Origin: a virus
DNA length: 64,000 bases
Reading direction: 5' to 3' (one strand)
IMG/VR virus record: IMGVR_UViG_3300037485_002668
Location: 35,245 to 99,244 of that record
Shown piece after piece: positions 4,279 through 64,000 of this stretch. The notes below the pieces were generated by a model. It saw nothing but the letters and a program-made list of their open reading frames with translations. It was not told the DNA's origin and searched no databases. A program made the position numbers and the translations under genes. The first letter of the stretch is position 1. Each line of letters begins with the position of its first letter.

Positions 4279-4700
4279 TACGCAACCCTCCCGAAAAAAT
4301 GCAACTGCGTTTCGTACCGGGCGGCGCGGCGGCCATAGGTGATAATTTCCATATAGTTCGGGTCGAGAATCATATCCATGTACGTGCCGGCGACCTCCAG
4401 GTAACGGTAATAGACGCGGACTTTATAATTGTTCGCAATGACGGCGCGGACTTTTGTTAAAGTGGACAGATATTCGTGAAAAATATCCAAGTCCAAGCGC
4501 CAATGTTCACGGTTACTGGCGGCGGCGGAAACCTTAGTGGGGTCATAAAGCGTGGGGTAAGCGTCATTCGTTTCAAGCGTGAACAGATTATTGACCGTAT
4601 AAATCTGGGCGGCGTTAATTTCCATTTCGTCAAAATCGTAGGCGGTACCCCAGGCGGCGCCGTTATAAAGTTGAATGCGGGTAACGTTGACGGCAGGCAT
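4278..4700 (-). CDS. Small tail protein downstream of tape measure
   Basis: 140 residues, single-base overlaps with both neighbours, so translationally coupled with the tape measure gene. A beta-rich small protein in this slot is commonly a distal tail or tape-measure-associated component. No family identified. Confidence 0.65.
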   Translation of the reverse strand: MPAVNVTRIQLYNGAAWGTAYDFDEMEINAAQIYTVNNLFTLETNDAYPTLYDPTKVSAAASNREHWRLDLDIFHEYLSTLTKVRAVIANNYKVRVYYRYLEVAGTYMDMILDPNYMEIITYGRRAARYETQLHFFGRVA

Positions 4701-7700
4701 TATGACCTCCCGAAACTGGTGACAGTGGTAATATTTTTCGAGCGGTCACGATACCAGCGTTCGGATTTCTTTTTGAACTCCACCCAGGCACTCGGGTCGC
4801 CGCTGTGAACGATCACATCGAAATTCAGGTCCACGTTGGACGTGGCGGGTTTGGCGTTCGGGAAAACGTTGGGGTCGCCCGTGGAAATGAACTGACGCCA
4901 GTTGGGTTCGGGGTATTTGGAAACCACGCCTTCAGGGATTACGACTTCGTTGCGTTTTAGTTTGGCGATAACTTCATCGGCGGCGATAAGGCCGGTGTGG
5001 GCGGTGACATCGTAGCCGAAACCGCCGGTATGGAGTGGGGGCGGGGTTGGCGGTGGCGTACCGTTATTGGCGGCGGCCAACCACTCCATTAATGCCTGAA
5101 GTTGAGCGTAAGCCTTAGTTAAATCCAGGTCAATTTCAATTTTCTTTTGATTATATGTATCAATTAAAGTATTTAAATCATCTTCAAGCTTTTTTAATTG
5201 ATTCTCAAATTCAGTAATTTCTAAATCGATTTCAAGTTGTTTGTTGTTATAAGTGGTATATAGTTCGTCTAACTTTTTCTTGAGTGCTTCGATTTGGTCT
5301 ATCGCTTCTTGTTTAACAGCATCTTTGGCCGCGTTTTCATCCAGGACACCGCCAGCATCGGTAAATTTTTTCTTTAATTCCTCAAGTTGCGCCGCCATGT
5401 CTTTATACGCCTGGCTGTTTGGATCGAGCGTAGCCAGAAAGTCTTGCATTCTGAAAATCATGGCGTTAATTTGTTCGTCTGCGCCAGTGGTATTGAAATC
5501 GATTTTAAAATAAGTCAGTTTATCAAGCGCCTTAGTGGCAGTATCAAAATCGGTAGAAAATTGGTCGTAATCGGCAAAAAGCGTATCCAGCATTTCACCC
5601 CAGTTAATTACCAATGCGTGCGTTTGGCCTGAGATACCTTCGAGCAACTTTTGAATTTCATATAGATTAGGCGGTGTATTACTTCCCATCCGTGCTAAAA
5701 TTTCATTTAATGATTTTACATTAGAAGTTATTTTTGCACGGTCAATTTCAAACGCATGTGTCAGTAAACTTTTTTCTTTTAATTTATCAGTAATGCTTTT
5801 TTGAATATCCATAATTTGAAATTCAATTTTTTCACGATTGGCATTGAATTCTACCTCAAGACTAATTTTCTCTTTTTCTAAATCCGCTATGGTTTTATTC
5901 AAATCAGTAATGGCAGCCTCTACTTTATTTTTTAAATCAGCGGCCATTGAATTTAATTGTAGATTGTTTGCGATTAGCCACTCGTTTAGCGTTCCCTGAT
6001 AACCGTTCATGACGGCTAAAGCGTACTGAGCTTTGTAAATGTTATCGGTCAGGTCTTTGTACGCTTGCGACTGGGGATCGAGGGTTGCCAAAAGTGCTTG
6101 ATTGTCAGCAATTGCCGCTTGCAAATCCGCAGTCATTTGTGGAAATTGAATATTTCCATAATAATTTTTCAATTCCAAAGCTTTTTCCGCTAACGACCCG
6201 AGTCCCGTAATTTGCGATGTAACAGCATCCGCCAACTCCGTAGTTAAACCACCGGTCGCGGCAGTTGCAGCAAGTAATTGTTCTACCAGAGTTTGTAAAG
6301 GTTCGGCTGCATTATTTAGTGCTAAATTGTTTTCCAACAACCATTCGTTCAAAGTCCCCTGGTAACCGTTTAAAACCGCCACAGCGTATTGCGCCTGCAT
6401 AATCGCATCCGCCATGTCTCTATATGCTTGTGACTGTGGATCCAATGTAGCCAGTAAGGCTTGATTTTGCTGGATGGTGTTCAACAAATCGGTTTCGATA
6501 GTCATGTTCGGCATTTCGCCAAAATATTTTTTCAGACGAATTGCCTCTTCCGCCATACTGGTTAAGCCAGTCAGCGAGGAATCAAAAGCCGCGCCTAATT
6601 CAGCGGTAATCCCGGTGGTCGATTCAACAGCGGCTTTAAATTGATCCGCTAACGTTTCTATCTGGGCAGCCTGATTATTCAGGTGTAAATTATTATTTAA
6701 AAGCCACTGATTGAAATCACCCTGGAATCCGTTCATAACTGCCAGGGCGTATTGTGCCTTATAAATATTGTCAGCTAAATCGCGATAAGCTTGTGACTGT
6801 GGGTCCAGCGTAGCAAGTAACGCCTGGTTGTTTGCGATTGCGGCTTCCAAATCTGCTGTCATTTGTGGAAACTTAATATTCCCGTAGTAATTTTTAAGCT
6901 CTAAAGCTTTGTCGGCTAATGATCCAAGCCCGGTGATTTGAGAAGTAACCGCATCTGCCAGTTCAGCGGTCAATCCACCAGTGGCTGCAGTAGCCGCCAG
7001 TAGCTGGTCAATCAAAGTTTGAAGTGGTTCTGCTGCATTGTTAAGCGCCAGGTTGTTTGCTATTAACCATTCGTTCAGCGTGCCTTGAAATCCATTCATG
7101 ACGGCTAAAGCATATTGCGCTTTATAAATATTATCAGATAGGTCTTTATATGCCTGAGAAGTTGGATCTAACGTAGCTAAAAGTGCTTGGTTGTTGGCAA
7201 TAGCCGCCTCCAGGTCTGCGGTCATTTGTGGAAATTCGATGTCGCCAAAATATTTTTTCATTTCCAGTGCACGATCAGCCAGGTCACCAAGACCTTTCAC
7301 TGTGTCTTTAAACTGATTCCCTAACTCTTCAGTCAAACCAATCCCGAGCTGGAAAGCATCCACAAATTGTTCCTGGAAAGTTTGGACAGCGGCAGTCGTG
7401 TTGTTTAATGTAATATTGTGGAGTCGCAAGTATTCGTCTATACTGGCAACTTCACCACGTGCCACAGCCAGTGCGGCCTGGGCTTTCCAGATTTCATCTT
7501 GTAAATCACGGTACGCCTGAGACGTGGGATTCAAAGTTCCCAGTAAAGCTTGGTTGTCCGCGATAGCTTGCGCTAAAGCTTGTTCCATTTCGCCAGTCGG
7601 CATGTTAAAATATTCTTTTACCCTTAACAATTCGTCTGCCAAAGAACCTAATCCCTGACGACTGGAATCGAAAGCGCTGGAAAGTTCGGAAGTCAAACCA

Positions 7701-10700
7701 GTTATGTCAATCGATTCCAAAAAATTGGCGGCTAGTTCATGTAACGCTGCGAAGGTAGCTTCCGCCCCGTTAGCCATGGCATCTAAAACTGTTTTGGTAG
7801 TGCTTAGTGTGATATTATATTTTGTGAAATATTCGTCTATGGAACCTACTTCACCACGCAATACAGCTAATGCCGCTTCCGATTTCCAAATGCTATCTTG
7901 AAGTTCACGATATGCCACTGAAGTTGGATCAAGCGTAGCCAGCAATCCTTTGTTGTCAATGATCGCTGCTTGCAAGTCACGTTCCATGCTGGGAAATTTT
8001 ATATCACCAAATTTCGCTCGCAACTGAACGGCGTTATCGGCTAAATCTGTCATCCCCTTTTGTGACTTTTCGAAGGCACTCAGCCAATCACCTGAAAGTA
8101 ATTTGCGCCCGGCTTTTTCAAATTCTTCCCCCATCTTCTCAGCATCCTGTGCAATCTTTTGTTTCTGCATCCCCTCATTTAATTCCGCTAATTTGGCGGT
8201 TACCCAAACCAGTGCATCGCCAGAAAGCACCCCACTGTCACGTAATGCTTCTAATCCGGAGATTTGTTCCCGTAATGGCGCGCTTGAATCTAAAAGTTTC
8301 CCGTACAGACCATCCAGTTTATCCATTACTTGCTGGTATTCATAAGATCCGGCTTGCAATTTAGGTAATAGTTCGGAATAGGCGTTGATTTGTTCCATTA
8401 CGCCATCGGTTGTTTCAATGCCCAACTCAGAAAGTTTTTTCAAAAGTTCCTGGTGTTCGGTAAGTTGAACATTCGATTGACTTAGCTTTTCACGTAATTG
8501 GTCAATCGCCATCATGACATTTTCATATTCAATCGAATCTTTACTAAGATTCGCGGCCACGCCTTCCAGCATCTTGATTTGATCCGCTAAAGGCGTATCC
8601 GATGCCGTCAACTTCTGAATAAGACTATTAATATTTTCGGTTGCAACCTGATATTCAGCGGAACCGATTTGCATGGTAGTCGCTAAGGCGTACCACTGTT
8701 TTATCTGTTCGTCAATTGGTGCATTTGAATCGACCAACTTACTAAGCGCCTGGCCAATTTTATCATAAAGTTGACGGTATTCGTAAGAATTTACATCCAA
8801 TTGAGCGGCCAGTAACGTCCAACTTTGAACTTGTTTTAATACCGATGCCTGGGTTTCAACGCCTGCCGCATCCATTGCTTCGTTAAATTTTTCCTGAGCG
8901 GATTTTGCTTTTTCTATTACCTCGCCGGTATTATTTAGCTGTAAATTATTCGCCAATAGCCAGGAATTGAATTCACCCTGATAGCCATTCATGACCGCCA
9001 GGGCATATTGAGCTTTGAAGATATTATCAGCTAAATCTTTATACGCTTGAGATGCCGGATCTAAAGTAGCCAAAACAGCTTGATTGCCCGCAATCGCAGC
9101 TTCTAAGTCAGCCGTCATTTGTGGAAATTTTATATCACCATAATAGTTTTTCATTTCGATGGCTTTGTCCGCCAGAGAACCCAGGTCGGTTATTTGAGAT
9201 TTGACGGCATCGGCTAAGGCGGTGGTAAGGCCACCTAATTTTTCAATTGATTCCTGAATACTATCGGCAAAAGTCTTTTGACCTTCAGTGGCACGTTCGG
9301 ATGCATAGTTAGCCGCTAACATTTCATCACCCGTACCTTCGACCCGAATCGCTAAATTTTCAAACCATTGTTCCGTACTGGAAACTTCACCCCGTAAGAC
9401 TGCCATCGTTGCCTGCGCTTCCCAAACCTGGATAGTCATTTTTTTGTAAGCATCGGAAGTTGGGTCCATGGTTGCAAGCAAGCGTAAATTCCCCTGCACG
9501 TTTTCATTTATTAAATCAGCCAGTCCCTTTTGACCCCAATCGGCCTTGCCGAATTGTTCCTGATTCTTTGCCGCAACGTCAATTAAATATTGCAAGTCTT
9601 CAGTGGCTTTGGTAAAACTATTATCAAAAGTAAAGGCGCGGGTTAACCGTTCCAATTCAGCCGTGTTGTTCTTTAGTTTATCGGTAAATTCTTTTTGGAT
9701 TTTTTCGCCTAAATCTTTAAAGCCTTCACCCATGTTTTTCATGTTTGCGCCAATGGTAACCATTACTAAAAAGGCTTGATTGGTATTGTTCAGACTGGTC
9801 AATAGTTTTGATTCAAAATCATTGGCAAGGTTATTTACTAATTCGTCAAGGGTTGTAATTTGCGTACCTAAATCACCCAGGCTGTCTTTCATATCATTGA
9901 CAGTAATTCCGGTTTTTTCGGCGGAACCGCCTAACACATCCATCAATAATGACGCGGCTTGCAATCCCAAAGAAACAGGATCAAGGCCGCCTTTTAAAAA
10001 GCCAGTTACTGTACTTGTTAATAAATCGACCGCCTTAGAACCCGTATCACCTAAGCCTAAAAACTTTTTCGCAACGTCACCGATTTGACCGGCGTATTCA
10101 GTCCAGTCTTTTGCGCCTTTCTCCGATTTTTGTGAAAGTCCCTCTACCTGTTCCTGGCTAATCCCCGCCTGAGCGACAAAAGCCTCCCAGCCTTTGGTAT
10201 CGCCAATTTTTTCGTAAAGCGATTTGATATTACCTAAAAGTTGTTTTTCACCATAGGCATCGCCCAACTCTTTGGCAACGGGTATCAACGCCGCCTGATT
10301 TGCAATCTGTTCGCGAACGGAAGAGGTTAATTCGATACCGGCATCGGTTAACATTTGAAGCCCAGTCTTTTGAGCATCGATAGCACTATTTGACCGATCC
10401 ATCTCTTCCATTAAGGAAACGATTCGATCCTCGACCATCTGATAACCAGTGGAGCCCTCCACCAATTTAGAACGAACGTCTTGTAATTGGGAAATTTGTT
10501 TTTCAATAGGTGCATTGGTATCAACAACCTTATCAATAGTTTCTTTTATTTTTTTGGTTAACTGGTCGTAATAGCCTGAACCCTTTTCAACCTGATCTGA
10601 TAAGGCTGAAAATTTATCGATTTGTTTCGTATTGTTTTCTAATAGGTCAACACCTGCGTCACTAAGTCCTTTGATAAGCAATTCCTGTTTCGATAGGTGT

Positions 10701-12904
10701 GGATTGACCATGCCTAATTTTTCATAAAGTTCATTCAGCTTATCGTTAATCTGTTTCTTAGCCGCAATATCATTCCCGTAAGCTGTGTATAACCGTTCAT
10801 AAGTTTGGACTTCCTTTTGAACTTCTGAAGATAATTTTATATTTGATTCTTTTAATAAATCCTGGGTGGAAGTCATCTTTTTTATCGGTTCAACGGTATC
10901 GCCGACTTTAGTTTTCAAATCATTTATTTGCGCCGTCAATTGGTTGTAATCATACGTACCTTTTTGAACCTTGTCACGCGCGACTTCTAAAGTAGTTATT
11001 TTATCCCGTAAAGATTTTTCAGATTGAATACCAGCGTCGGCTAATGCTTTTTCAGCGCCCGTAAGCTGGTCAATTTCCTTTCGCATCGCTTCGGCTTTAT
11101 CGGTAGCTTTTTTCAGGTCGGTAGCAAAAGCGCCTGCATTACCCATGGCCACGCCAAAACCGACTTTCATCGCCCGCAGCCAGGAGTTGCTCGGTTCAAT
11201 TTCCTTTTGAATCTGGTCTTCAATCTCTTTGAGTTGCGTTTTTAGACGTTCCGTTTCGATTTCACGAAACGCCCGTGCAATGCCTGCCAGACTCATTCCA
11301 TACTGGTCAACGTTGATACCAGACTCTTCTAATTTCTTGCGTAAAGCTTCCGTAGTTTCGGTATATGCCGCCGTCCCCTCTTTGGTAGATTCAAGTTTTT
11401 TACCGAGCGCCTCAACCGAATCTACGTTGTCGGAAGTAGCATCGATTTCAGCAAGCATCGCCTGGTATTGACGTTCAAGGGCAGCGCTAAAAATAGCATA
11501 GACCGCGACCACAGCTCCGACTCCAATTGCCAAAGAACCGAGACTTGCACCGGATTTCCCAAGTGCCTCATTTACTGGTGATAGTTTATCTTTTAAGCCA
11601 TCAAAAGCTTCTTTCAACACGTCGACTGTTGCTTTGCCGGTTTCCCATGCTTTTTTAAAAAACTGAATTCCACCGGTTAATGCCACTATACTTCCAACTG
11701 ATATTGCAACTGCTTTTAAGGCTGCGGGATGTTCATTAATAATAGTAAGGGTTTTGTTAATTGCAGGTAAAAATTGACTGCCGAGAGTTATGGCCAGGTC
11801 ATTGACAATTACTTTTAACCGATTGAATTGAGCTGTGGTAGTTGCGCTTCGTACCGCGAATTCAGCGGCTAAAGAGGAATTTTCAGAATAAGAGGTAGCA
11901 CTATCATCTAAAGCTTTTTTGAATAAGTCAACCGATCCGGCACCCTTAAGAAGTGTTTGGCTAAGGCCGGCACCAGTATATCCAAGCTTATCTAAGGCGA
12001 CCATGCTGTCTTTACCCGATGCCTTTAAACCCTCAAGAAAAGTTATAATAGTACCAGCAGCGTCTTTTTCAAATGCTCTTTTAAATTCAGCACCCGTCAT
12101 TGTACCAGCAGCGGATGCCTTGCCGGCAACATTCGCAAGTTCCTCCAACTTGGCGCCGCCTTTGGCTACGGCAAGGGACATATCCATAACCAATTTTGAA
12201 AAAGCGGTGCCGCCTAATTCAGCATTCATCCCCGTACTGGCAAGTGACGCTGAAATTGCCAAAATTTGTTGTTGTGTAATCCCTGCCTGAGCGCCAGCGC
12301 CAGCAAGACGGCCGGCAAAGTTCATGATTTCGCCTTCGCCGGCGGCCGATGCCGCTCCCAACGTATTAACCGCCGATCCGATTCGACTTATTTGTTCCGC
12401 CGCTGACATGCCCGCCGGTGCGACCCCACGGGTAACGTTAACAAACCGCGCCATAGATTCGGAAGCCTCCTCTACGGACATATCGGTAGTTACGCCCAGC
12501 ATGGAAACGGTTTTGGTAAAGCCTAATAAATCCGAATTGGCGATACCTAGCTGACCGCCGATTTCAGCGATCCGGTTTAATTCGTTGACAGAAGTTCCCG
12601 ATTCAATTGCCAGTGAACGCAAACCATCCTGGAGTTTTTGACCGGCATCAGTTAATTTACCGGTGGAATCCCGTACCCCGTCAACTGTTTTAGCGACCCC
12701 AGCGAAAGATTCCTCAAATTTAGCGGCGGCTAAAATACTGCCGGTAATAGCTCCAGCCGTAGCAAGCATAGCCACGTTTAACACGGTATTTAAAGTTTGG
12801 GCGGTTTTGGAAGTATTGTCCTGAACCTTTTTTAATCCAGAAGAAAAAGTATCGGTTCCTTCCAGGCTTATGCGTGCAACGATATCGGTAACGCCACCAA
12901 ACAT
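4700..12904 (-). CDS. Tail tape measure protein, very long
   Basis: 2,734 residues, the largest gene here. Residues ~30-400 match TP901-type tape measure proteins (KFEESFAGVAKTVDGVRD, long Ala/Gly-rich helices). Hydrophobic segments follow near residues 395-415 and 455-475. The middle is coiled coil and contains about eight copies of an ~85-110-residue unit centred on NNQALLATLDPxSQAYKDL. The C terminus has further coiled coil, then a PPPTPPP linker and a globular end. The protein sets tail length and is injected with DNA; at roughly 0.15 nm per residue it implies a tail near 400 nm. AAGGA precedes ATG 12904. Confidence 0.95.
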   Translation of the reverse strand: MFGGVTDIVARISLEGTDTFSSGLKKVQDNTSKTAQTLNTVLNVAMLATAGAITGSILAAAKFEESFAGVAKTVDGVRDSTGKLTDAGQKLQDGLRSLAIESGTSVNELNRIAEIGGQLGIANSDLLGFTKTVSMLGVTTDMSVEEASESMARFVNVTRGVAPAGMSAAEQISRIGSAVNTLGAASAAGEGEIMNFAGRLAGAGAQAGITQQQILAISASLASTGMNAELGGTAFSKLVMDMSLAVAKGGAKLEELANVAGKASAAGTMTGAEFKRAFEKDAAGTIITFLEGLKASGKDSMVALDKLGYTGAGLSQTLLKGAGSVDLFKKALDDSATSYSENSSLAAEFAVRSATTTAQFNRLKVIVNDLAITLGSQFLPAINKTLTIINEHPAALKAVAISVGSIVALTGGIQFFKKAWETGKATVDVLKEAFDGLKDKLSPVNEALGKSGASLGSLAIGVGAVVAVYAIFSAALERQYQAMLAEIDATSDNVDSVEALGKKLESTKEGTAAYTETTEALRKKLEESGINVDQYGMSLAGIARAFREIETERLKTQLKEIEDQIQKEIEPSNSWLRAMKVGFGVAMGNAGAFATDLKKATDKAEAMRKEIDQLTGAEKALADAGIQSEKSLRDKITTLEVARDKVQKGTYDYNQLTAQINDLKTKVGDTVEPIKKMTSTQDLLKESNIKLSSEVQKEVQTYERLYTAYGNDIAAKKQINDKLNELYEKLGMVNPHLSKQELLIKGLSDAGVDLLENNTKQIDKFSALSDQVEKGSGYYDQLTKKIKETIDKVVDTNAPIEKQISQLQDVRSKLVEGSTGYQMVEDRIVSLMEEMDRSNSAIDAQKTGLQMLTDAGIELTSSVREQIANQAALIPVAKELGDAYGEKQLLGNIKSLYEKIGDTKGWEAFVAQAGISQEQVEGLSQKSEKGAKDWTEYAGQIGDVAKKFLGLGDTGSKAVDLLTSTVTGFLKGGLDPVSLGLQAASLLMDVLGGSAEKTGITVNDMKDSLGDLGTQITTLDELVNNLANDFESKLLTSLNNTNQAFLVMVTIGANMKNMGEGFKDLGEKIQKEFTDKLKNNTAELERLTRAFTFDNSFTKATEDLQYLIDVAAKNQEQFGKADWGQKGLADLINENVQGNLRLLATMDPTSDAYKKMTIQVWEAQATMAVLRGEVSSTEQWFENLAIRVEGTGDEMLAANYASERATEGQKTFADSIQESIEKLGGLTTALADAVKSQITDLGSLADKAIEMKNYYGDIKFPQMTADLEAAIAGNQAVLATLDPASQAYKDLADNIFKAQYALAVMNGYQGEFNSWLLANNLQLNNTGEVIEKAKSAQEKFNEAMDAAGVETQASVLKQVQSWTLLAAQLDVNSYEYRQLYDKIGQALSKLVDSNAPIDEQIKQWYALATTMQIGSAEYQVATENINSLIQKLTASDTPLADQIKMLEGVAANLSKDSIEYENVMMAIDQLREKLSQSNVQLTEHQELLKKLSELGIETTDGVMEQINAYSELLPKLQAGSYEYQQVMDKLDGLYGKLLDSSAPLREQISGLEALRDSGVLSGDALVWVTAKLAELNEGMQKQKIAQDAEKMGEEFEKAGRKLLSGDWLSAFEKSQKGMTDLADNAVQLRAKFGDIKFPSMERDLQAAIIDNKGLLATLDPTSVAYRELQDSIWKSEAALAVLRGEVGSIDEYFTKYNITLSTTKTVLDAMANGAEATFAALHELAANFLESIDITGLTSELSSAFDSSRQGLGSLADELLRVKEYFNMPTGEMEQALAQAIADNQALLGTLNPTSQAYRDLQDEIWKAQAALAVARGEVASIDEYLRLHNITLNNTTAAVQTFQEQFVDAFQLGIGLTEELGNQFKDTVKGLGDLADRALEMKKYFGDIEFPQMTADLEAAIANNQALLATLDPTSQAYKDLSDNIYKAQYALAVMNGFQGTLNEWLIANNLALNNAAEPLQTLIDQLLAATAATGGLTAELADAVTSQITGLGSLADKALELKNYYGNIKFPQMTADLEAAIANNQALLATLDPQSQAYRDLADNIYKAQYALAVMNGFQGDFNQWLLNNNLHLNNQAAQIETLADQFKAAVESTTGITAELGAAFDSSLTGLTSMAEEAIRLKKYFGEMPNMTIETDLLNTIQQNQALLATLDPQSQAYRDMADAIMQAQYAVAVLNGYQGTLNEWLLENNLALNNAAEPLQTLVEQLLAATAATGGLTTELADAVTSQITGLGSLAEKALELKNYYGNIQFPQMTADLQAAIADNQALLATLDPQSQAYKDLTDNIYKAQYALAVMNGYQGTLNEWLIANNLQLNSMAADLKNKVEAAITDLNKTIADLEKEKISLEVEFNANREKIEFQIMDIQKSITDKLKEKSLLTHAFEIDRAKITSNVKSLNEILARMGSNTPPNLYEIQKLLEGISGQTHALVINWGEMLDTLFADYDQFSTDFDTATKALDKLTYFKIDFNTTGADEQINAMIFRMQDFLATLDPNSQAYKDMAAQLEELKKKFTDAGGVLDENAAKDAVKQEAIDQIEALKKKLDELYTTYNNKQLEIDLEITEFENQLKKLEDDLNTLIDTYNQKKIEIDLDLTKAYAQLQALMEWLAAANNGTPPPTPPPLHTGGFGYDVTAHTGLIAADEVIAKLKRNEVVIPEGVVSKYPEPNWRQFISTGDPNVFPNAKPATSNVDLNFDVIVHSGDPSAWVEFKKKSERWYRDRSKNITTVTSFGRS
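5380..9540 (-). repeat. Protein-level tandem repeats within tape measure gene
   Basis: At least seven well-conserved units (centres around 6080, 6440, 6800, 7160, 7540, 7930, 9070) plus divergent copies near 5420 and 9460 share the motif ALLATLDPxSQAYKDLxDxIxKAQxALAV. Several also share FPQMTADLEAAIANNQ and LNEWLIANNLxLNN. DNA identity is clearly lower than protein similarity, so the duplications are old or under purifying selection. Confidence 0.85.
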
Positions 12905-21968: not shown

Positions 21969-21997
21969 TTGACTTTTTAGATTTTTATGCGTATATT
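21969..21997 (+). promoter_or_regulatory. Sigma-70-like promoter for plus-strand block
   Basis: TTGACT at 21969-21974, a 17-bp spacer, and TATATT at 21992-21997, about 50 bp before ATG 22051. It is close to the E. coli-type consensus and faces the only plus-strand genes, so these are probably early genes read by host polymerase. Confidence 0.75.
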
Positions 21998-23648: not shown

Positions 23649-23717
23649 TCTAATCCCCGGTCGTTTCGGGCGTGACCGACGGCCGGGGAGCTACTTAATT
23701 AACTTAATTTTAACTTT
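23649..23717 (+). repeat. Repeated intergenic spacer, copy 1
   Basis: Contains CCCCGG...CCGGGG (23655-23660 / 23683-23688) and ends in ttaattaacttaattttaactt. A near-identical copy lies at 24051-24117, so the gene between sits within direct repeats. Confidence 0.8.
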
Positions 23718-24050: not shown

Positions 24051-24117
24051 TCTAATCCCCGGTCGCTTCGGGCGTGGCCGATGGCCGGGGGCTACTAATT
24101 AACTTAATTTTAACTTA
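24051..24117 (+). repeat. Repeated intergenic spacer, copy 2
   Basis: Matches copy 1 with only a few substitutions, including the CCCCGG/CCGGGG hairpin and the AT-rich right end just before the next ribosome site. Confidence 0.8.
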
Positions 24118-24126
24118 AGGAGATAT

Positions 24127-24366
24127 ATGGGGAAAAAATGGCTTGTTTTGGAATCGGGTCTAATGCAATTAGATGACCCGTATAACTGGATTTTAAGAAA
24201 TAGTAAAGAAAAAAATCCCCATTCAATAATCAGATGGTTGCCACTACCTCAACCATTGAGTTCCATCGGGGGATTACCAAAGGATCTATTCGAAAAAAGT
24301 AATGCCGTAAAGCTTTTTTCGGATGAAGACCTCTGGTTGGAGACATTCGGGATAAAAGTCAGATAA
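24127..24366 (+). CDS. Early-region small protein, unknown
   Basis: 79 residues with a strong AAGGAGAT site before ATG 24127. Pro/Leu-rich middle (IIRWLPLPQPLSSIGGLP). It ends 12 bp before a fragment copied from the PP-loop gene. No family recognised. Confidence 0.65.
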   Translation: MGKKWLVLESGLMQLDDPYNWILRNSKEKNPHSIIRWLPLPQPLSSIGGLPKDLFEKSNAVKLFSDEDLWLETFGIKVR

Positions 24367-24378
24367 CTAAACAAATCA

Positions 24379-24522
24379 TTGCAGGAACTCCCTGGCGTCT
24401 GTACCCGCGAACTGAATAGTGACGTCCTGCGTGATCTTGCCACGACTGACGTAATTTATGAATTGTTGAAAAAAATCAGCGGCAAGCCTTATTATGATTG
24501 GTTTGAAAAAATGAACACCCAC
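24379..24522 (+). pseudogene. 144-bp fragment copied from the PP-loop ATPase gene
   Basis: Matches the minus strand of 37733-37876 with about three mismatches over 144 bp. It corresponds to the C-terminal part of the PP-loop protein (LQELPGVCTREL...FEKMNTH). It has no start of its own and is a copied gene remnant in inverted orientation, 13 kb from its parent. Confidence 0.9.
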
Positions 24523-24535
24523 AGATGGAGGTTTA

Positions 24536-24865
24536 ATGAATAAAAAAACAATCAGTACCAGGGGGTCGATAGCCCTGGCTGAATGGGTTCAAAAAACATT
24601 CGGTAATCGGAACCGAGGCATGGAAGCAATGATTTGGTTTATCAAGGCTATTTTGGACAAAACGGAGTTGTCTTTCAGTGACGAAGTATTAAAAGAAATC
24701 GCCCAACGGGTCGGGAATTTACCGGCCGAATTTTGGGCGGATATTGAAGTCATTGCGATTATGGTTGGCGGAACTAACGGAATACTAATCAAGACATTGG
24801 ATGTCAATGAATGCTTTGCCATGATGGTACGCATTCAAAAGTTAAAAGTAAACAGTGAAAAGTAA
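24536..24865 (+). CDS. Early-region protein, unknown
   Basis: 109 residues with GGAGG before ATG 24536, only 13 bp after the copied fragment. Helical N terminus (SIALAEWVQKTFGNRNRGMEAMIWFIKAIL), acidic middle. No domain recognised. A short AT-rich stretch with repeated taaaag words follows to 24917. Confidence 0.7.
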   Translation: MNKKTISTRGSIALAEWVQKTFGNRNRGMEAMIWFIKAILDKTELSFSDEVLKEIAQRVGNLPAEFWADIEVIAIMVGGTNGILIKTLDVNECFAMMVRIQKLKVNSEK

Positions 24866-29804: not shown

Positions 29805-30548
29805 TCAAAGATAACTTCTGATTTCAGGACATTTCGTAACTAAAAAATTGAACTGCTCAGGATAGTTCCGTTTCAAAAACAGATAAAATCCACGCTCGCC
29901 AATACTTAAAATATACCAATTTACACGAATCCACTCACGTTCCGGAATCGTATTGGCTTTTAAATAAATCGGATGGTATTCGTAGTCCGAATGAGTTATA
30001 AAAGAAAAAATATCATTGGCGTCTAAATAGGCGACGGGATAACAACTAAAAGCCTTAAAAGATTTGTTAAAAAAATAAGTGCCATTGACGCCAATGGTCA
30101 TTTTACGGGCACGGCTTTCCTGAACCCGGATCCCGGTAATCACCAGGTCATATTCCTTGTTCGTATTCCACCAGGGTTTTAAAATTTCCTTATTGACTTT
30201 ATTAATCGCCGTCAAATCAAAATACCCGGCCGTTAACTTTGCAATCAAAGGGTCAATCTTGGGATTAATTTCCCTTAAATTAAAGCCCAATTTTTCAGCG
30301 GCGGCCTTTACAAATGAATCAGTTTCAGGAAATTCGTAACCACTATTGAACCAAACCAACTCAGGCGTAAGGTTCAACTGTTTACACAAAATCGCACAGG
30401 TCAAGGAGTCTTTGCCGCCGCTAAAAGACAACGCTATTTTCTGTTTATTTTTACTGGCATTCTCCAGGATCAATTTGGCCCGTTTTATTTTTAGCATGAC
30501 CCGATTATTTTGATAATTCATCAAATCGAATTGCGTAAATTTATGCAC
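29805..30548 (-). CDS. cysH: CysH-like PAPS-reductase family protein of type IV-B module
   Basis: 247 residues. FSGGKDS (S43-S48) is the PP-loop ATP/PAPS site and GIRVQESRAR (139-148) matches the GIRxxES(R) motif of the family; YLDANDIFSFI is also typical. The gene starts 3 bp after csf3 and ends the operon. CysH-like genes are the characteristic companion of type IV-B CRISPR loci, where their role is not settled. Sulfate assimilation is unlikely here because no other cys genes are near. The AT-rich composition is shared with csf1-csf3. Confidence 0.85.
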   Translation of the reverse strand: MHKFTQFDLMNYQNNRVMLKIKRAKLILENASKNKQKIALSFSGGKDSLTCAILCKQLNLTPELVWFNSGYEFPETDSFVKAAAEKLGFNLREINPKIDPLIAKLTAGYFDLTAINKVNKEILKPWWNTNKEYDLVITGIRVQESRARKMTIGVNGTYFFNKSFKAFSCYPVAYLDANDIFSFITHSDYEYHPIYLKANTIPEREWIRVNWYILSIGERGFYLFLKRNYPEQFNFLVTKCPEIRSYL

Positions 30549-30551
30549 GGT

Positions 30552-31307
30552 CTACGCCCTGGCCAATGGTTTCAACTTAGTACCCGCAGGATATGAATTT
30601 ACTGGCTTTGAATTTATACCATAATACGGCGGACAAATTGGGCGCATTTCTATAAAATCATTTTCAGGAAACCAGCCTTTTTGTTTACAATAATCGACAG
30701 GCAAAGGACGCATTAATTTATCATAACGCATTAATGCAAAAGACGAATTGCCATTTTGTTTTTCAATTTCCCAGGTACATTCACCCCAACCGACACTATG
30801 CTTTTTACCGATATGAGCGGGATTGGGGATTATTTTTTTCAGCAATTCGATATTGCCTTCGCCAAAAATTTTATAATGCTTACGGTCAGAATATAAAGTT
30901 GGCATCAGATACGATTTAAAATCGCCTTGTTGGACGGAAACGCGTTTTGCATTTACCGAATTTAATAGTCGCTTTTCAAAACGTTTAGTCCAGTAAGTTG
31001 ATTTTTCAGGCAAATCAAAGAGATAACTACACATATAAAAAAAAGTATCTTTAAACTGGACTTTAAAAAGTGGAATCGTAATGGGCACCAACTCATCATG
31101 ATCATAACTCAAATTGAAATAATCAGATTGCAATACGTAAAGCATGGTATAGTGTGCAATCACCGAATCAAACGCCAAAATATCATTGCCACTGCGACCT
31201 GTTTTAAATTCAAGATGAATGATAAAATTTTCATTCAGTGCGCTTTTACGGGTCAGATTATTCCAATTTTCGACTTTGTTTAAAATTGAAGGTTCTAATT
31301 TTCGCAA
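30552..31307 (-). CDS. csf3: Csf3-like (Cas5 family) type IV CRISPR effector subunit
   Basis: 251 residues. IGKKHSVGWGECTWEIE (166-182) matches the conserved glycine-rich (I/F)GKKRxxGYGxV segment of Csf3/Cas5-type RAMP proteins. The C terminus has EMRPICPPYYG and a basic end. It lies 11 bp after csf2 and 3 bp before cysH, the order expected for subtype IV-B. Cas5 proteins cap the RNA 5' end in effector complexes. Identification is by motif and order together; either alone would be weaker. Confidence 0.8.
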   Translation of the reverse strand: MRKLEPSILNKVENWNNLTRKSALNENFIIHLEFKTGRSGNDILAFDSVIAHYTMLYVLQSDYFNLSYDHDELVPITIPLFKVQFKDTFFYMCSYLFDLPEKSTYWTKRFEKRLLNSVNAKRVSVQQGDFKSYLMPTLYSDRKHYKIFGEGNIELLKKIIPNPAHIGKKHSVGWGECTWEIEKQNGNSSFALMRYDKLMRPLPVDYCKQKGWFPENDFIEMRPICPPYYGINSKPVNSYPAGTKLKPLARA

Positions 31308-31318
31308 GGTAGCATCCG

Positions 31319-32506
31319 TTATTTTTTTAAATTTAACTGGTTCAGAGTGGCTTTAATTGCATCGCGCTGATTTGTTAAAAATGAATTTGCTAAAGTCGGA
31401 TCTAATTGCTGATCGTAACAGACGTTAATTTTCCCAAAACCCGCCCGGCTCATGCCACCGATTTTTCCATCTTCAGCAAAGAGAGTTAGCATCAAATGCA
31501 AAAAGGCGGTTTCAACTTCATTCAAATAAAAATGATCAACCGACCAATTAAACAGACAGCCCGCTTCCATCGCCAAAATAGAATAAAACATCTGAACATG
31601 CGAACCGCCCAATTCAGCCTGCCATTCTGGCGTAATAGCACCTTCATAATCATCTACCCGCGTCATGAAATATTCTTTAAGATAGCTAATCGCAGGCCGG
31701 TCATTCTGGCCGTTTTCCATACAATGTAAATGGGCAAAATTGACATTTATTTTGCCGGGCAAATCTTCGTTTCCAATCATGGCGCCTAAAATAGACAAAA
31801 ACGGCAATTTTTCACGTAGCTCCCGTTTGGTTGCAATATCCACAAATCCAGTCGATTTGGTTAACATACCGCCGCTAAAAAGAGTATGGTAAGCTTTCGG
31901 TTCATAAATTTGATGGGGGTCGGCGTTCTCAAAAACAATTTTTGTGACATAAGCCATAAGTTGATCCCGCATCCGGCCACGAATTGAATTGCCTGGGATA
32001 GTCGGAACCAAGAAGTCTGATTCGGTAGTAAGGATGTCTTCAGAAATAACGAACCCCTCGCGGAAATTGAAGGATTCGGTTTGGTAAATGGCCGCAGCTA
32101 CGAACAGATCAATATTTTCACGCGCCCACTGAAGAATGTTCAAATTTTCATCTTTTGAAAGTCCGAAAGCAAATTTAGTGGTATATTGATAAAAAGACGG
32201 CTCCGCTATTGGCAGGTGTTTTAAAAGATTAGTAAAAAATTGGGAGATCGTCGAGCTACACAAAGCGGCAAACACACGATCCCGAAACGCTTCGGTAAAT
32301 GAACGGGAACCAAAATTATCTTTATTGCAGTTACGATAAAACGAACCGACACATTTAATAAGCTCTTCAGCGATTTCTTTTTTAATAACAATCGTTTTTT
32401 TTGAATGCGGGACATGAATCATATAGGGAAGCTGAATGTTCCCCGATTTATCCCCACCTACGAAAACAGGGTCAATTGCGGTAATCGTTGCGTTTATTCT
32501 GGACAT
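31319..32506 (-). CDS. csf2: Csf2-like (Cas7 family) type IV CRISPR backbone protein
   Basis: 395 residues. FLVPTIPGNSIRGRMRDQL (PGNSIRG at 170-176) is the Cas7-family motif seen in Csf2 and Csm3/Cmr-type RAMP proteins, and GGMSRAGFGKINV (350-362) is the C-terminal glycine-rich segment. HTLFSGGMLTKS and SILGAMIGNEDLPGKI also fit Csf2. It overlaps csf1 by 13 nt. Cas7 subunits coat the guide RNA as a filament. Type III Cas7 was considered, but the csf1 zinc protein and cysH neighbours favour type IV-B. Confidence 0.85.
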   Translation of the reverse strand: MSRINATITAIDPVFVGGDKSGNIQLPYMIHVPHSKKTIVIKKEIAEELIKCVGSFYRNCNKDNFGSRSFTEAFRDRVFAALCSSTISQFFTNLLKHLPIAEPSFYQYTTKFAFGLSKDENLNILQWARENIDLFVAAAIYQTESFNFREGFVISEDILTTESDFLVPTIPGNSIRGRMRDQLMAYVTKIVFENADPHQIYEPKAYHTLFSGGMLTKSTGFVDIATKRELREKLPFLSILGAMIGNEDLPGKINVNFAHLHCMENGQNDRPAISYLKEYFMTRVDDYEGAITPEWQAELGGSHVQMFYSILAMEAGCLFNWSVDHFYLNEVETAFLHLMLTLFAEDGKIGGMSRAGFGKINVCYDQQLDPTLANSFLTNQRDAIKATLNQLNLKK

Positions 32507-33183
32507 GTTTTTACCTCTTCTGTTTTGATTTTATAAAGTGAATTAACCATTAATTTAAATTGTTCCGTATGTCGGACGGGTTGTAATTTTTTATAATCCG
32601 AAAAACTTAGGCTGTACTTTTGAAATTTCCAGGGTGGAATCGTACCGGCCAGCAGTTCATCTTTGGTACATTTATTTTCATAAAATGATTTTGCGATTTT
32701 ATAAAAATCAAACCACCGGGAGCGTTCAAACTGGATATTCAAGTTGTCAGTACAGACGTAAAATAATGCTGAATTATGTGAAACAAGCGACTTAAAAGCA
32801 ATATGTTTTTTCCCGCTCTGGCTAAAAACCAGAATAAACGGCGGGTTAAACGAATGTTCAAATAGATAGAACGGCTTTTCACTAAAGTCGATTTTAATAA
32901 ATTGATTGTTTTCTACCAGGTACGAATACAATCGCAAGCCACACCGCGCACCTTTGGGGCTTGCCAGGCTTTCATCGGAAAGTGAAAAAACGCAAAAATC
33001 ACAAAGTACGTCGGATTGTTTGTACCTCAGCATATTATAATCGGTAAAGTTGCCTGAAAAAATCTCTTTAGCTTTACGCCATTCTGACATGATTCGCGTG
33101 CCACCACATAGACAGCAGGTTTGGTCAGAATCGATTCCTGGCTTTTGCGTGATGGCGGTTACGATAAATTCTGTGTTGGTCAT
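32494..33183 (-). CDS. csf1: Csf1-like (Cas8-like) type IV CRISPR protein
   Basis: 229 residues. CxxC at C23-C26 and C61-C64 form the zinc finger seen in Csf1, and the length (~230) is typical. The C terminus (KYSLSFSDYKKLQPVRHTEQF) is basic and helical. It is the first gene of the operon, directly behind hairpin element 7. A nine-codon leader starting in the element, MIDSQKEAT, ends with a TGA overlapping this ATG. Between csf1 and csf2 there is no room for the cas11 gene normally found in IV-B. Confidence 0.8.
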   Translation of the reverse strand: MTNTEFIVTAITQKPGIDSDQTCCLCGGTRIMSEWRKAKEIFSGNFTDYNMLRYKQSDVLCDFCVFSLSDESLASPKGARCGLRLYSYLVENNQFIKIDFSEKPFYLFEHSFNPPFILVFSQSGKKHIAFKSLVSHNSALFYVCTDNLNIQFERSRWFDFYKIAKSFYENKCTKDELLAGTIPPWKFQKYSLSFSDYKKLQPVRHTEQFKLMVNSLYKIKTEEVKTCPE

Positions 33184-36531: not shown

Positions 36532-37592
36532 GGCTGTTTCTCTGGTAAAATTGGGGTTGGTAGTTGACCTTTGCGCCAGCGGCGGAACATTTGTTTTAGT
36601 TCCAGGGCGCGGTGGTAATAGGTATGGTATTTTTCAATCAGACGGCGGCCAGACTGACCAATACGCACCGCGGCGGACGGGTGGCGGCGATAGTAATCGA
36701 TTAATTCAAATAGTTCCTGAATATTTTCGTACCAGACCAGGTGCTTGCGGTTCACAAACATTTCTTCAATACCGGCGAATTTGGTGACCAGAAACATGCG
36801 CCCCGTGGCCAGGCTGAGCCAGGTACGGTTGGACGTGGAACCATAAATTTCCCGATAATTTTGCACGCCCAAAACAATCCGGGCGCGGGACATCTGGTAA
36901 TTGGCATCGGATTCGAACGCGGCGGGCAGGTAAAAACACAATTGTTTCGGATCCCACCAGCGACCAACTATTAACATCTTGTACTGCCAGGCGGTGTTGT
37001 AAATTAAAAACTGGCGTTCCCGATTGGAATAGTCCAGGTAACGGGGCTGGGTAGATTTGTCGGAACCGATAAAAATCAGGTCAAAATCGCAGCGGTCTAA
37101 ATTATAATGCAGGGGATAATAAATTTCGGGATCAACGCCCTGGTGCCAGCATTGGATATTTTGCACGCCGGCGGTTTGGTAATTTTGCCATTGGGGGGGA
37201 TCCTGGTTATTCAGGAATAAGGCGTCACAAACTTTGCCCAGTTCGGATACGCGGCGGGTGAGAGCGCGATCCTGGTCGTAGAAATAAAAAAACGTGAACA
37301 TATCGGGGAACAATTCTTTAAACATTTTAATCTTCGCAGGGGTGGCGCTGTTATCGCTGAGCATCAGGATATCGGGGTGGAATTTAGCTACCTGATCTAA
37401 CAGCATTTCCGCCCAACTGGCGCCATGCTGAAGATGGCCGCCGCGATTATCGATTAAACGAACATTAAAACCCGCCTTTTTCAAGCCACGCAGCAATCCC
37501 GAACGGTGATACGGTGAAAAATTAGGTTCCAATTTTTGCCAGAAACTGCTATTTTCATAAGGCGCCAGGTGCATTAACTTTAAACGTGCCAT
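36519..37592 (-). CDS. CgeB-like GT-B glycosyltransferase
   Basis: 357 residues from ATG 37592. N-terminal Rossmann part MARLKLMHLAPYENS...FHPDILMLSDNSATPAKIKMFKELFPD, central DLIFIGSDKSTQPRYLDY and C-terminal SLATGRMFLVTKFAGIEEMF match CgeB/GT4-like phage glycosyltransferases with a glycosyltransferase-1-type end (LATGxxxLTxxxxGxEE). It overlaps the PP-loop gene by 13 nt, so the two probably work together. Confidence 0.75.
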   Translation of the reverse strand: MARLKLMHLAPYENSSFWQKLEPNFSPYHRSGLLRGLKKAGFNVRLIDNRGGHLQHGASWAEMLLDQVAKFHPDILMLSDNSATPAKIKMFKELFPDMFTFFYFYDQDRALTRRVSELGKVCDALFLNNQDPPQWQNYQTAGVQNIQCWHQGVDPEIYYPLHYNLDRCDFDLIFIGSDKSTQPRYLDYSNRERQFLIYNTAWQYKMLIVGRWWDPKQLCFYLPAAFESDANYQMSRARIVLGVQNYREIYGSTSNRTWLSLATGRMFLVTKFAGIEEMFVNRKHLVWYENIQELFELIDYYRRHPSAAVRIGQSGRRLIEKYHTYYHRALELKQMFRRWRKGQLPTPILPEKQPCSN

Positions 37593-38968
37593 ACTTGCTC
37601 CAGAAGTTTTAACCATTGCGAGGGGAGATTCTGATTTTTATTTTCGTCGGCAGGGGGGTCGTAAGCATATTCCACAAAATGTTCCCGCAAAATCGGGGTA
37701 ATCAAATCCGGGCGCCAGCTTAGGTTCAGGGCGTGGGTGTTCATTTTTTCAAACCAATCATAATAAGGCTTGCCGCTGATTTTTTTCAGCAATTCATAAA
37801 TTACGTCAGTCGTGGCGAGATCACGCAGGACGTCACTATTCAGTTCGCGGGTACAGACGCCGGGGAGTTCCTGCAACGTGGGTACAATATTTAAGGCGCG
37901 CAAATACAATTCCGTGCGACCACATTTGCCACAGCGGAAACAACTTTTTGCGGCGTGCATGCAACTGCCCTGATATTCAAACGCGGGTCGGTAACGGGTC
38001 AATAACAATTTTTGCACACCAAAATCGGACAGGCTCCAGAACGGGTCGGCAAAGGGAACGTTCAAAAGCTGGCTGAGTTGCGTCAGGGCAAAAAAGGACG
38101 GTTTCGGCCAGAACGGGAGTTTAGAATTTAATTGCACTTTAGTTTCGCCGATACTAGCGCCAATTAAAACCGCGGCAGGATTTAGCGGCAGAGCGTACAG
38201 CCACCAGGGAATTTCCCAGAACTTTACGGCATTCAGATTGGTTTCGGCGATAGTATGGCGGATATTGAAACGTGTGTAAAATTTACACAGATTGGCGTAA
38301 CGGTCGGGCCAGTCGTGGTTATACGCAAGCGTAAAACCGCAAAAGTCCTGACGCAATTCACGCAATAAAAGCGATAGGGTCAGGCCATCCTTGCCGCCGC
38401 CATTGCAGGCGTAAATCATTTGGCCGGGGGGGAATGGTTCCGGGTCGACAATATTTGCCGCGTGGATTTGGACGGGTTTCAAATGCAGCATTTGCGCGAC
38501 AAATTTCAAATGTAAATTTAAAATAGTTTGTTGCGTTTCCGTCAGGCAATCGAAACGTAAGTCGGTCGCGCCCCAGATCGCGTGTTCCATGAGCAGATAG
38601 CCGAAAAAGAAATTTAAGATTGACGGGGGGAGTGAAACGGGGCGGTCGTAATTGACCCAGATTAATTGCGCGGGGAGTGTGGCCAGCGGTTTGGCAAGAC
38701 GGCAGAATAATTGGTGGTCGTGAATTTGCGTCTGCACGGGAATGGCGGGACTTTCGGGCGGGCGGGGGGGCGGAATGACGGTGGCTTTGGTTTGGGTTTC
38801 GGAAACTAAAACAAAATAGCCGGCACGAATCTGGGCGCGCCAGAAATCGGTGTCCGGGATTTGCAGCACGGTTTTGGGGTTAAACTGGCGGGAGGAGATG
38901 TCCACCGTAAAACCGTGAGGGTCGGATTTTAGGAGCGGGGTAACGGCGGTGACGTTTAAAAGTTTCAT
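37580..38968 (-). CDS. PP-loop (adenine nucleotide alpha-hydrolase-like) protein
   Basis: 462 residues from ATG 38968. ACNGGGKDGLTLSLLL is a PP-loop ATPase signature similar to SGGxDS of QueC/tRNA-modification and sugar-amidation enzymes. CMHAAKSCFRCGKCGRTEL gives a Cys cluster like those of QueC-type enzymes (zinc or Fe-S). The substrate is unknown: a nucleobase, nucleotide-sugar or glycan step are all possible given the glycosyltransferase neighbour. A 144-bp piece of its C-terminal coding region is copied at 24379-24522. Confidence 0.7.
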   Translation of the reverse strand: MKLLNVTAVTPLLKSDPHGFTVDISSRQFNPKTVLQIPDTDFWRAQIRAGYFVLVSETQTKATVIPPPRPPESPAIPVQTQIHDHQLFCRLAKPLATLPAQLIWVNYDRPVSLPPSILNFFFGYLLMEHAIWGATDLRFDCLTETQQTILNLHLKFVAQMLHLKPVQIHAANIVDPEPFPPGQMIYACNGGGKDGLTLSLLLRELRQDFCGFTLAYNHDWPDRYANLCKFYTRFNIRHTIAETNLNAVKFWEIPWWLYALPLNPAAVLIGASIGETKVQLNSKLPFWPKPSFFALTQLSQLLNVPFADPFWSLSDFGVQKLLLTRYRPAFEYQGSCMHAAKSCFRCGKCGRTELYLRALNIVPTLQELPGVCTRELNSDVLRDLATTDVIYELLKKISGKPYYDWFEKMNTHALNLSWRPDLITPILREHFVEYAYDPPADENKNQNLPSQWLKLLEQVWHV

Positions 38969-38991
38969 GAAGGGGGTGTCGTCCTTGGCTT

Positions 38992-39028
38992 GCTGACAAT
39001 CATGATTCCACACGGGCAGGCCGTGTGG
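38992..39028 (-). repeat. Dispersed hairpin element 10
   Basis: Perfect stem CCACACGG/CCGTGTGG, loop GCAGG, flank gctgacaatcat. It separates the PP-loop cassette from the RNA ligase. Confidence 0.95.
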
Positions 39029-58813: not shown

Positions 58814-59949
58814 TATTTTTTATTACCTTTGGTTTTGATAATAGTTCCCAGCGAACTCAATACCTTTTGGTATTGGTCGGGTGGAATTTTGGCCGTCCAG
58901 GTTTCGAAAGGTTCCTGGTCGATGTTTAATGCAAATGTTTCGATAAAATAGCCGCCCACGAAACGCTTTGATTCGGGGGCTTGATTCATTAAATTTAAAA
59001 AGACCGCAACGTTTTTCTGGAATTTTTGCAATTCAGAATTTTGGGCATTGGGGTCGGCTTTAGGCGGTTCAGCGACCGGGGCGGCGACGGGCGGCGGTTC
59101 CATGCCCATGCGTTGTTTCGCCGCGGTCACGGCAGATTGAATTGGCGCAGGGGTATTTTTGACGGGTTCAATTACAAAAATATCGGCGACGGACATTTCG
59201 CCGGAGTCCAGCACGACCAGATCGGTTTCCATCATGGCCAGTACGGAAATTGGGATGGCGGCCGGGTCGCCGAAAGCGTACCGTTGTTTTAACATGTGAT
59301 CAGGAATTTTGTGGGCGGTCAGGCGGTCCAGATAGGATTTGCTGACCTGGGCGTGACCCTTGGCCGTAATTTGGTTTTGAATCGCTTCATGATGGGCGCC
59401 TTTGGCGGTTTTTAACGCCAATTGAATCAAGGGTTCCGGGATGCCACCGACAATTGTATTGCGCAGCCATTTAGAATAAGCTGAGGAAAAAGCCATTTCT
59501 TCCGCGCGTTCCGCCTGGTAGCCGCCCGAGACTTTGCGCTGCGCCCACAGGTATTGACGGGGGATCACCACGTTGCGTTCGTAATCGATAAACACGCCGC
59601 TCAGGATATGCTTTTCGCCAACGACCTGCATGGGGTCTTGTTCCACGGTGCAATTCCCGTACAATTGCATTAAGGTACGGGCGCCACCGATACTTAAATC
59701 GCTAACGATTACGTACTTTTGATCCTTTTCGCTATAAAACGTGAAAAAATAATAGAAACTTTCCGGGTTCAATTCGGCAAGCTGTTTCGTCTGTTCGGCA
59801 ATACTTCGCAGGTCACGGGGCTTAATCAGCGAAATTTGAGTTTGGGCGCGGCCTTTGATTTGAACCGCGGCCTGCTGATTTTGGGTGACGGCCTGGGTCA
59901 TGGGTTTCAGGTGATTGGGTTGGGTGGCGGGTAGGTTTGGATTATTCAT
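58813..59949 (-). CDS. Single-strand annealing/recombination protein (probable)
   Basis: 378 residues with AGGAG before ATG 59949. Ala/Gln-rich N terminus, LSIGGARTLMQLYGNC, AEEMAFSSAYSKWLRNTIVGGIP, and a Pro/Ala-rich linker before a C-terminal domain. It overlaps the exonuclease gene by 8 nt, as recombinase pairs do. RecT-like or other annealing family cannot be chosen from sequence alone. Confidence 0.6.
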   Translation of the reverse strand: MNNPNLPATQPNHLKPMTQAVTQNQQAAVQIKGRAQTQISLIKPRDLRSIAEQTKQLAELNPESFYYFFTFYSEKDQKYVIVSDLSIGGARTLMQLYGNCTVEQDPMQVVGEKHILSGVFIDYERNVVIPRQYLWAQRKVSGGYQAERAEEMAFSSAYSKWLRNTIVGGIPEPLIQLALKTAKGAHHEAIQNQITAKGHAQVSKSYLDRLTAHKIPDHMLKQRYAFGDPAAIPISVLAMMETDLVVLDSGEMSVADIFVIEPVKNTPAPIQSAVTAAKQRMGMEPPPVAAPVAEPPKADPNAQNSELQKFQKNVAVFLNLMNQAPESKRFVGGYFIETFALNIDQEPFETWTAKIPPDQYQKVLSSLGTIIKTKGNKK

Positions 59950-61087: not shown

Positions 61088-61097
61088 TAACAATTCT

Positions 61098-63483: not shown

Positions 63484-63922
63484 AGATTTCCTCAAGGAAC
63501 GGATACGCCAATCGCGGGTAAGGCAACGAGACGTCATAAAGCCATTGCGTTACTTCGATTAAATGACCCATATAATCCATGCCGCGGGCGGGGGTGTTGG
63601 CGCGGAGGTCTAATAATTCAAGTTCCCGTTGGGTCAGGCGTTGGCTATCCAGTAAAACCTGCGGCCATTTGGCGGGGTTGACGTGCAGGTAGAAATGGCA
63701 CCCGGAACAAAGACCGTAAACGTTTTGCGGATCCCAGCGGGTGGACATTTTTTTTCGGGAATGGTAATGCGCTGCCTGGTAGCTGTTGGGAACTTTACAG
63801 TCAGGCGTGAGGCGATATACCATACCGCAGCGGGAACAGGTCAAGTTATCCCGCAATCTAATGTACAGTGAAAACAGAGTGTCAATTTTTTCGATTAAAG
63901 CCCGGTGTGGGGCTTTAGACAT
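63437..63922 (-). CDS. NinG/Rap-like recombination nuclease
   Basis: 161 residues. CSRCGMVYRL, QAAHYHSRKKMSTRWDPQNVYGLCSGCHFYLHVNPAKW is the NinG (Rap) HNH-like nuclease core with CxxC pairs and AAHYxxR. It resolves branched DNA intermediates in recombination and fits with the exonuclease/annealing pair nearby. Confidence 0.85.
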   Translation of the reverse strand: MSKAPHRALIEKIDTLFSLYIRLRDNLTCSRCGMVYRLTPDCKVPNSYQAAHYHSRKKMSTRWDPQNVYGLCSGCHFYLHVNPAKWPQVLLDSQRLTQRELELLDLRANTPARGMDYMGHLIEVTQWLYDVSLPYPRLAYPFLEEIYEKTAAARQRLSEKT

Positions 63923-63951
63923 GGGACTCCTTGGTTAAAAATTTGCGGCCT

Positions 63952-64000
63952 GTCCCGGTGCAGGACTCGAACCTACCCTATCAGGTAAATCGTTTACTTG
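63952..64000 (-). tRNA. Partial tRNA at window edge
   Basis: Minus-strand T-arm GTAGG-TTCGAGT-CCTGC (63960-63976) is followed by ACCGGGA as acceptor 3' half. A hairpin GTAAA-CGA-TTTAC precedes it like a long variable arm, suggesting a class II tRNA (Leu, Ser or Tyr-like). The 5' half and anticodon lie outside the window. Confidence 0.6.

What the first reader, a model, noticed from the sequence alone, without database searches (positions are those of the whole stretch)
24379..24522. 144-bp copy of the PP-loop gene in the early region
A segment of the 37733-37876 coding region appears inverted at 24379-24522 with about three mismatches. It lies in an otherwise tight plus-strand block, has no start and cannot be a functional gene. 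Its high identity implies recent duplication, or maintenance for some use (recombination target, antisense RNA to the PP-loop gene).
Basis: seen in the sequence. Interest (0 to 1): 0.65.

Follow-up and report, generated by a model that had tools for sequence, protein, structure and literature searches.

The report
Stray gene-fragment copy in a phage
A 144-base piece from the middle of one phage gene was recently copied, intact, into the gap between two other genes of the same phage; it is a real but most likely inert leftover of a recombination accident, and the proposed antisense role does not fit its orientation.

Summary
Window 24379-24522 (+) matches the reverse complement of 37733-37876 at 141 of 144 bases. 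It is the strongest non-terminal repeat in the 99,244-bp phage contig, and no other gene-fragment duplication of this kind was seen there. The three differences are all C (parent) to T (copy) on the coding strand, all synonymous, so 48 codons are preserved. The copy fills the gap between two plus-strand genes: it starts 12 nt after one stop codon and ends before the Shine-Dalgarno-like GGAGG of the next gene. It has no ribosome-binding site of its own.

An assembly artefact is unlikely. The contig closes with a 127-bp end overlap, as in a k=127 assembly, while the longest exact run shared by the copies is 56 bp.

The best explanation is a recent ectopic duplication, tolerated because it broke neither neighbour and probably functionless. 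The phage encodes a RecE-like exonuclease, and the parent segment is bordered by 7-bp direct repeats. Weaker alternatives are an exapted promoter (TTGAAA-18-TATTAT) and an inversion switch. No relatives were found, so age, conservation and direction are only inferred.

The parts
24379..24522 (+). 144-bp copy of an internal coding segment (48 codons) of the PP-loop-like gene, in sense orientation
   Evidence: 141/144 identity to 37733-37876 reverse complement; three synonymous C-to-T differences
37733..37876 (-). parent segment inside the PP-loop-like gene, residues 380-427 of the 477-aa ORF
37580..39013 (-). parent gene: 477-aa PP-loop-like protein (NGGGKDG motif, CxxCGKCG motif); below-threshold match to DUF6395
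   Evidence: ORF; PF19932, E 0.009, 16.5 bits against a cut-off of 25
37877..37883 (-). ACCCACG, immediately before the parent segment; the same 7-mer recurs across the segment's far end (37732-37738, minus strand)
   Evidence: only two ACCCACG in the gene; border repeats of 7 bp or more occur at 0.12% of positions
24127..24366 (+). upstream early-block gene, 79 aa, intact; stop codon 12 nt before the copy
   Evidence: no Pfam, PHROG or NCBIfam match
24536..24865 (+). downstream early-block gene, 109 aa, intact, with its own GGAGG at 24527-24531, just outside the copy
   Evidence: no Pfam, PHROG or NCBIfam match
24379..24543 (+). 54-codon open frame through the copy (TTG start, no Shine-Dalgarno), ending 8 nt inside the next gene; probably not translated
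24466..24495 (+). promoter-like TTGAAA-18-TATTAT (10/12) inside the copy, pointing at the 24536 gene; the parent has CTGAAA (9/12)
   Evidence: 2.1% of 144-nt sense slices of the minus-strand genes carry a site this good

Best explanation
It is a recently duplicated gene fragment (a partial pseudogene). A 144-nt internal piece of the PP-loop-like gene was copied, probably in a single illegitimate recombination or template-switch event, into an intergenic gap of the early plus-strand block. It survives because it interrupts neither the upstream stop codon nor the downstream ribosome-binding site. It is transcribed, if at all, as a sense stretch of the early mRNA leader and has no function of its own. 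Shown: the identity, the orientation, the intact neighbours and the absence of a Shine-Dalgarno-like site. Inferred: the direction (PP-loop gene to gap), the mechanism and the lack of function.
For: Sharp borders, 98% identity and no homology in the downstream flanks. The copy lies wholly in an intergenic gap: with the 144 nt removed, 25 nt remain, against 46-89 nt for the other gaps of the block. Both neighbours are intact. The parent copy lies inside a long ORF, while the early copy is an isolated fragment. Its GC (44%) is nearer the parent segment (47%) than the early block (38%). The DUF6395 profile, where it matches weakly, expects about 106 more positions after residue 376; the gene has 101 residues there with the segment and would have 53 without it, so the segment probably belongs to the gene. 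A RecE/YqaJ-type recombination exonuclease is encoded at 59942-61093 (PF09588, E 1.3e-08; PHROG 434, E 7.8e-30). The donor segment is bordered by 7-bp direct repeats, a configuration at 0.12% of positions. It is the only such duplication in the contig.
Against: All three differences are synonymous: p = 0.009 if all substitutions are equally likely, 0.044 for transitions, 0.19 for C-to-T changes only. This could hint at coding constraint, though mutations in the parent, or an origin from another allele of the same gene, explain it equally well. A promoter-like site lies in the copy. No relative was found to show the empty site or that the copy is transient.
Confidence: 0.76

Rival explanations
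1. Exapted promoter or leader: the inserted fragment supplies an extra sigma-70-like promoter (TTGAAA-18-TATTAT) and a short leader for the downstream 109-aa gene.
For: The site scores 10/12 and points at the next gene about 40 nt away. The copy-specific T at 24466 improves the first hexamer from the parent's CTGAAA. Only 2.1% of 144-nt sense slices have such a site.
Against: Post hoc. The 15 promoter-like sites in the early region compare with 9.3 +/- 3.4 expected from shuffles. There is no extended -10, the spacer is 18 nt, and an equally good site with the standard 17-nt spacer (TTGACT-17-TATATT, 21969-21997) already lies upstream of the whole block.
Confidence: 0.09
2. Assembly or library artefact (chimeric join, amplification inversion).
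For: It comes from a single metagenome contig; inverted chimeras are known from amplified DNA (own knowledge). Reads are not available here.
Against: Three fixed differences. The longest exact shared run is 56 bp, while the contig ends overlap by exactly 127 bp, so the copies share no 127-mer. The insertion point falls in the 11% of the block that is intergenic and damages no gene.
Confidence: 0.05
3. Short peptide: the 54-codon frame makes a small protein identical to part of the C-terminal region of the PP-loop protein, for example an interfering or partner fragment.
For: The frame is intact and its amino acids are 100% conserved despite three base changes. It overlaps the next start by 8 nt, as coupled genes do, and is in frame with the upstream gene after its stop.
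Against: TTG start without Shine-Dalgarno; the other starts in the block have RBS-like AGAGGTG, AGAGGGG or GGAG(G) upstream. The synonymous pattern is not significant for C-to-T changes (p 0.19). No family match and no relative in phage records.
Confidence: 0.04
4. Recombination target: the inverted repeats let the 13.2-kb segment between them invert, swapping the last part of the PP-loop protein for RWRFNE and flipping the genes between.
For: A 144-bp inverted repeat at 98% identity, a RecE-like exonuclease, and a frame that stays open across the exchange.
Against: Inversion would turn a whole operon against the long minus-strand block and truncate the PP-loop gene. No dedicated recombinase gene was seen beside the repeats. 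No inverted form could be looked for.
Confidence: 0.03
5. Regulatory RNA: a sense decoy (sponge) for factors acting on the PP-loop mRNA, or a minus-strand antisense transcript.
For: Long perfect stretches; folding of the leader is somewhat more stable than shuffles (z = -1.78).
Against: Plus-strand transcription gives sense RNA, not antisense. There is no minus-strand promoter-like site in the copy and no Rfam match in the window.
Confidence: 0.03

Closest known systems
Partial gene duplications / gene-fragment pseudogenes formed by illegitimate or recombinase-assisted ectopic recombination in phages (general knowledge; no specific matching case was found in the papers searched)
   Same: Short, near-identical, start-less piece of a resident gene placed in an intergenic gap with sharp borders; the phage encodes a RecE/YqaJ-type exonuclease
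   Different: Inverted and 13 kb away, not tandem; donor bordered by 7-bp direct repeats; no relatives known, so the empty site cannot be shown
Invertible segments flanked by inverted repeats (Mu gin type, shufflons)
   Same: Two inverted repeats with an open frame across the possible exchange
   Different: No adjacent site-specific recombinase seen; the repeat is coding sequence of a gene, not a crossover site; no evidence of inversion
Antisense or decoy RNAs
   Same: Extensive identity to a resident mRNA
   Different: Orientation gives sense, not antisense, RNA; no dedicated promoter and terminator shown

Membership tests
Partial gene duplication (fragment pseudogene) | High identity to part of a resident gene with abrupt ends | tested here: met
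   141/144, sharp borders
Partial gene duplication (fragment pseudogene) | Lacks the signals to be expressed as the gene | tested here: met
   48 of 477 codons; no Shine-Dalgarno before the TTG
Partial gene duplication (fragment pseudogene) | Absent from close relatives (empty site) | tested here: inconclusive
   Relatives were sought but none found in viral or genome contigs or phage records
Antisense regulator of the PP-loop gene | Transcript complementary to the target mRNA | tested here: not met
   Plus-strand RNA has the target's own sense; no minus-strand promoter-like site in the copy
Invertible DNA switch | Inverted repeats flanking the segment | tested here: met
Invertible DNA switch | Both orientations present in the population | not testable with these tools
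   No reads
Invertible DNA switch | Adjacent site-specific recombinase | tested here: not met
   No such gene among the neighbours of either repeat that were searched; a tyrosine-recombinase-like ORF lies elsewhere in the contig (L003:17467-17931)
Mobile element insertion | Terminal inverted repeats, target-site duplication or several copies | tested here: not met
   Only two places, one being the gene itself; no duplicated target bases beside the copy

The most novel reading that the evidence does not exclude
The fragment was captured as a working early promoter: the phage built a new regulatory site from an internal piece of its own PP-loop gene, with a base that differs in the copy improving the -35 hexamer.
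Probability: 0.07. Interest if true: 0.45.

Novelty: new member of a known kind. Interest (0 to 1): 0.17.

Why it matters
It is a clean, recent example of how a phage acquires stray gene fragments in intergenic gaps, the raw material for new leaders, promoters or small genes. As a functional element it is probably ordinary. It would matter more only if the copy proved to be conserved or to act as a promoter.

Tried and rejected
Relatives of the PP-loop gene, of the downstream early gene, of the terminase and of the csf2-like gene in viral contigs: none confirmed. PP-loop protein in genome contigs, two scans: none. The piece of the PP-loop protein just before the segment in viral contigs: none. 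A 41-nt exact probe of the copy in viral contigs: none. A probe of the dispersed hairpin element in viral contigs: none. DNA and protein searches of phage records with the copy, the early block and the PP-loop protein: none. PDB by sequence: none. AlphaFold2 of the PP-loop protein from one sequence gave pLDDT 33, unusable, so no fold search was made. Mobile element: rejected, one extra copy, no terminal repeats or target duplication. Antisense RNA by plus-strand transcription: rejected on orientation. A simple microhomology insertion through the bordering ACCCACG does not fit, because the left junction of the copy lacks that motif; the exact mechanism stays open. Literature searches for a matching case of phage gene-fragment duplication gave nothing specific.

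Full report
Observation. It is the best non-terminal repeat in the 99,244-bp contig (blastn E 4e-66), and a DNA search of the contig finds only these two places. Similarity ends sharply; the 400-nt downstream flanks show none, and the upstream flanks only a weak local score reached by 3% of shuffles. Chance is excluded.

Is it an assembly error? The contig ends carry an exact 127-bp direct repeat, the signature of a circular contig from a k=127 assembler (my inference from how such assemblers work). The two copies share exact runs of only 14, 44, 27 and 56 bp, so they share no 127-mer through which a false join could be made. The three base differences also speak against a plain chimera. Reads would settle it and are not available here.

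Anatomy. The parent gene (37580-39013, minus, 477 aa) is a PP-loop-like protein by its NGGGKDG motif. The only Pfam match is DUF6395, below its threshold. The copied piece is residues 380-427. The copy lies on the plus strand between a 79-aa gene (stop at 24364-24366) and a 109-aa gene (start 24536, with GGAGG at 24527-24531). Removing the copy leaves a 25-nt gap with the ribosome-binding site intact; the other gaps of the block are 46-89 nt. The copy reads in the same frame and sense as the parent for all 48 codons, then RWRFNE and a stop that overlaps the next start by 8 nt. There is a TTG codon at its first base but no Shine-Dalgarno-like sequence before it.

Differences. All three are C in the parent and T in the copy on the coding strand (CCC/CCT, CTC/CTT, CTG/TTG), and all are synonymous. 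The probability that three random changes are all synonymous is 0.009 if all substitutions are equal, 0.044 for transitions and 0.19 for C-to-T changes, so constraint on the copy is not established. If the changes arose in the parent, or if the copy came from a slightly different allele of the gene, synonymy is expected anyway.

Orientation and the antisense idea. The parent mRNA is read from the minus strand, and the copy is the parent's sense sequence on the plus strand. Read-through transcription of the plus-strand block therefore makes sense RNA, which cannot pair with the parent mRNA.

Origin. The PP-loop gene is the likelier donor: there the segment is part of a long ORF, and the weak DUF6395 match leaves about 106 profile positions after residue 376, against 101 residues present and 53 without the segment. 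On its coding strand the donor segment is preceded by ACCCACG, and the same 7-mer spans its end; such border repeats occur at 0.12% of positions. This hints at a recombination or template-switch origin, although a simple insertion through that motif does not reproduce the left junction. The phage encodes a RecE/YqaJ-like recombination exonuclease, which makes ectopic exchange plausible.

Possible function. The only positive hint is a promoter-like TTGAAA-18-TATTAT inside the copy, pointing at the 109-aa gene; the T found in the copy makes the first hexamer better than the parent's CTGAAA. About 2% of comparable slices have such a site, and the region as a whole has only modestly more promoter-like sites than shuffles, so I give this under 10%. 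Folding of the leader is unremarkable (z = -1.78).

Relatives. No relative was found in viral contigs, genome contigs or phage records for the copy, the parent protein or the downstream early gene. The terminase has only distant relatives among phage records, the best at 48% identity. The empty site and the age of the copy therefore cannot be shown.

Verdict. Real, recent, and most likely an inert gene-fragment duplication. The surroundings contain more interesting things (a type IV-B-like csf cluster with a cysH-like gene, and about two dozen hairpin elements with paired stem changes before gene starts), listed under things noticed.

Noticed in passing
window 2722-61567, minus strand (about 21 copies), and three more outside the window at about -329, -644 and -8187: Dispersed 46-nt element, all copies on the minus strand and many close before gene starts: a mostly 8-bp GC-rich hairpin (loop often CTTGC or CCCGC) whose stem varies with paired changes (CCACCCAG/CTGGGTGG, CCACACGG/CCGTGTGG, CCCCGCGG/CCGCGGGG, CTACACGG/CCGTGTAG), followed by a conserved NTGATTGACAGCCAAA. 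No Rfam match in the window. The layout recalls the SAS/ESAS of cluster K mycobacteriophages (PMC3203893), but the sequence differs. Worth its own study.
   Followed up: partly
window 29805-33183, minus strand: Type IV-B CRISPR-like cluster in a phage: csf1-like (32494-33183), csf2-like RAMP (31319-32506), csf3-like (30552-31307) and cysH/PAPS-reductase-like (29805-30548); the csf matches are weak but collinear. No CRISPR array was seen among the window's repeats. A cysH-like gene and the lack of an array are marks of type IV-B (PMC8175902).
   Followed up: partly
contig ends: L003 1-127 and window 63874-64000: Exact 127-bp terminal direct repeat, so the contig is probably a complete circular assembly.
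   Followed up: yes
window 23649-23716 and 24051-24116, plus strand: Two 68-nt direct repeats, 93% identical, each a GC-rich hairpin with its flank just after the stop codon of an early-block gene.
   Followed up: no
window 25437-52590, minus strand: Large cargo region: several glycosyltransferase-like genes, DNA and SAM-dependent methyltransferase-like genes, a radical SAM protein, an RNA ligase and two PP-loop-type proteins (several only by reading the ORFs).
   Followed up: no
window 4700-12904, minus strand: 2734-aa tape-measure-like protein with internal repeats of about 300 nt at 60-78% identity.
   Followed up: no
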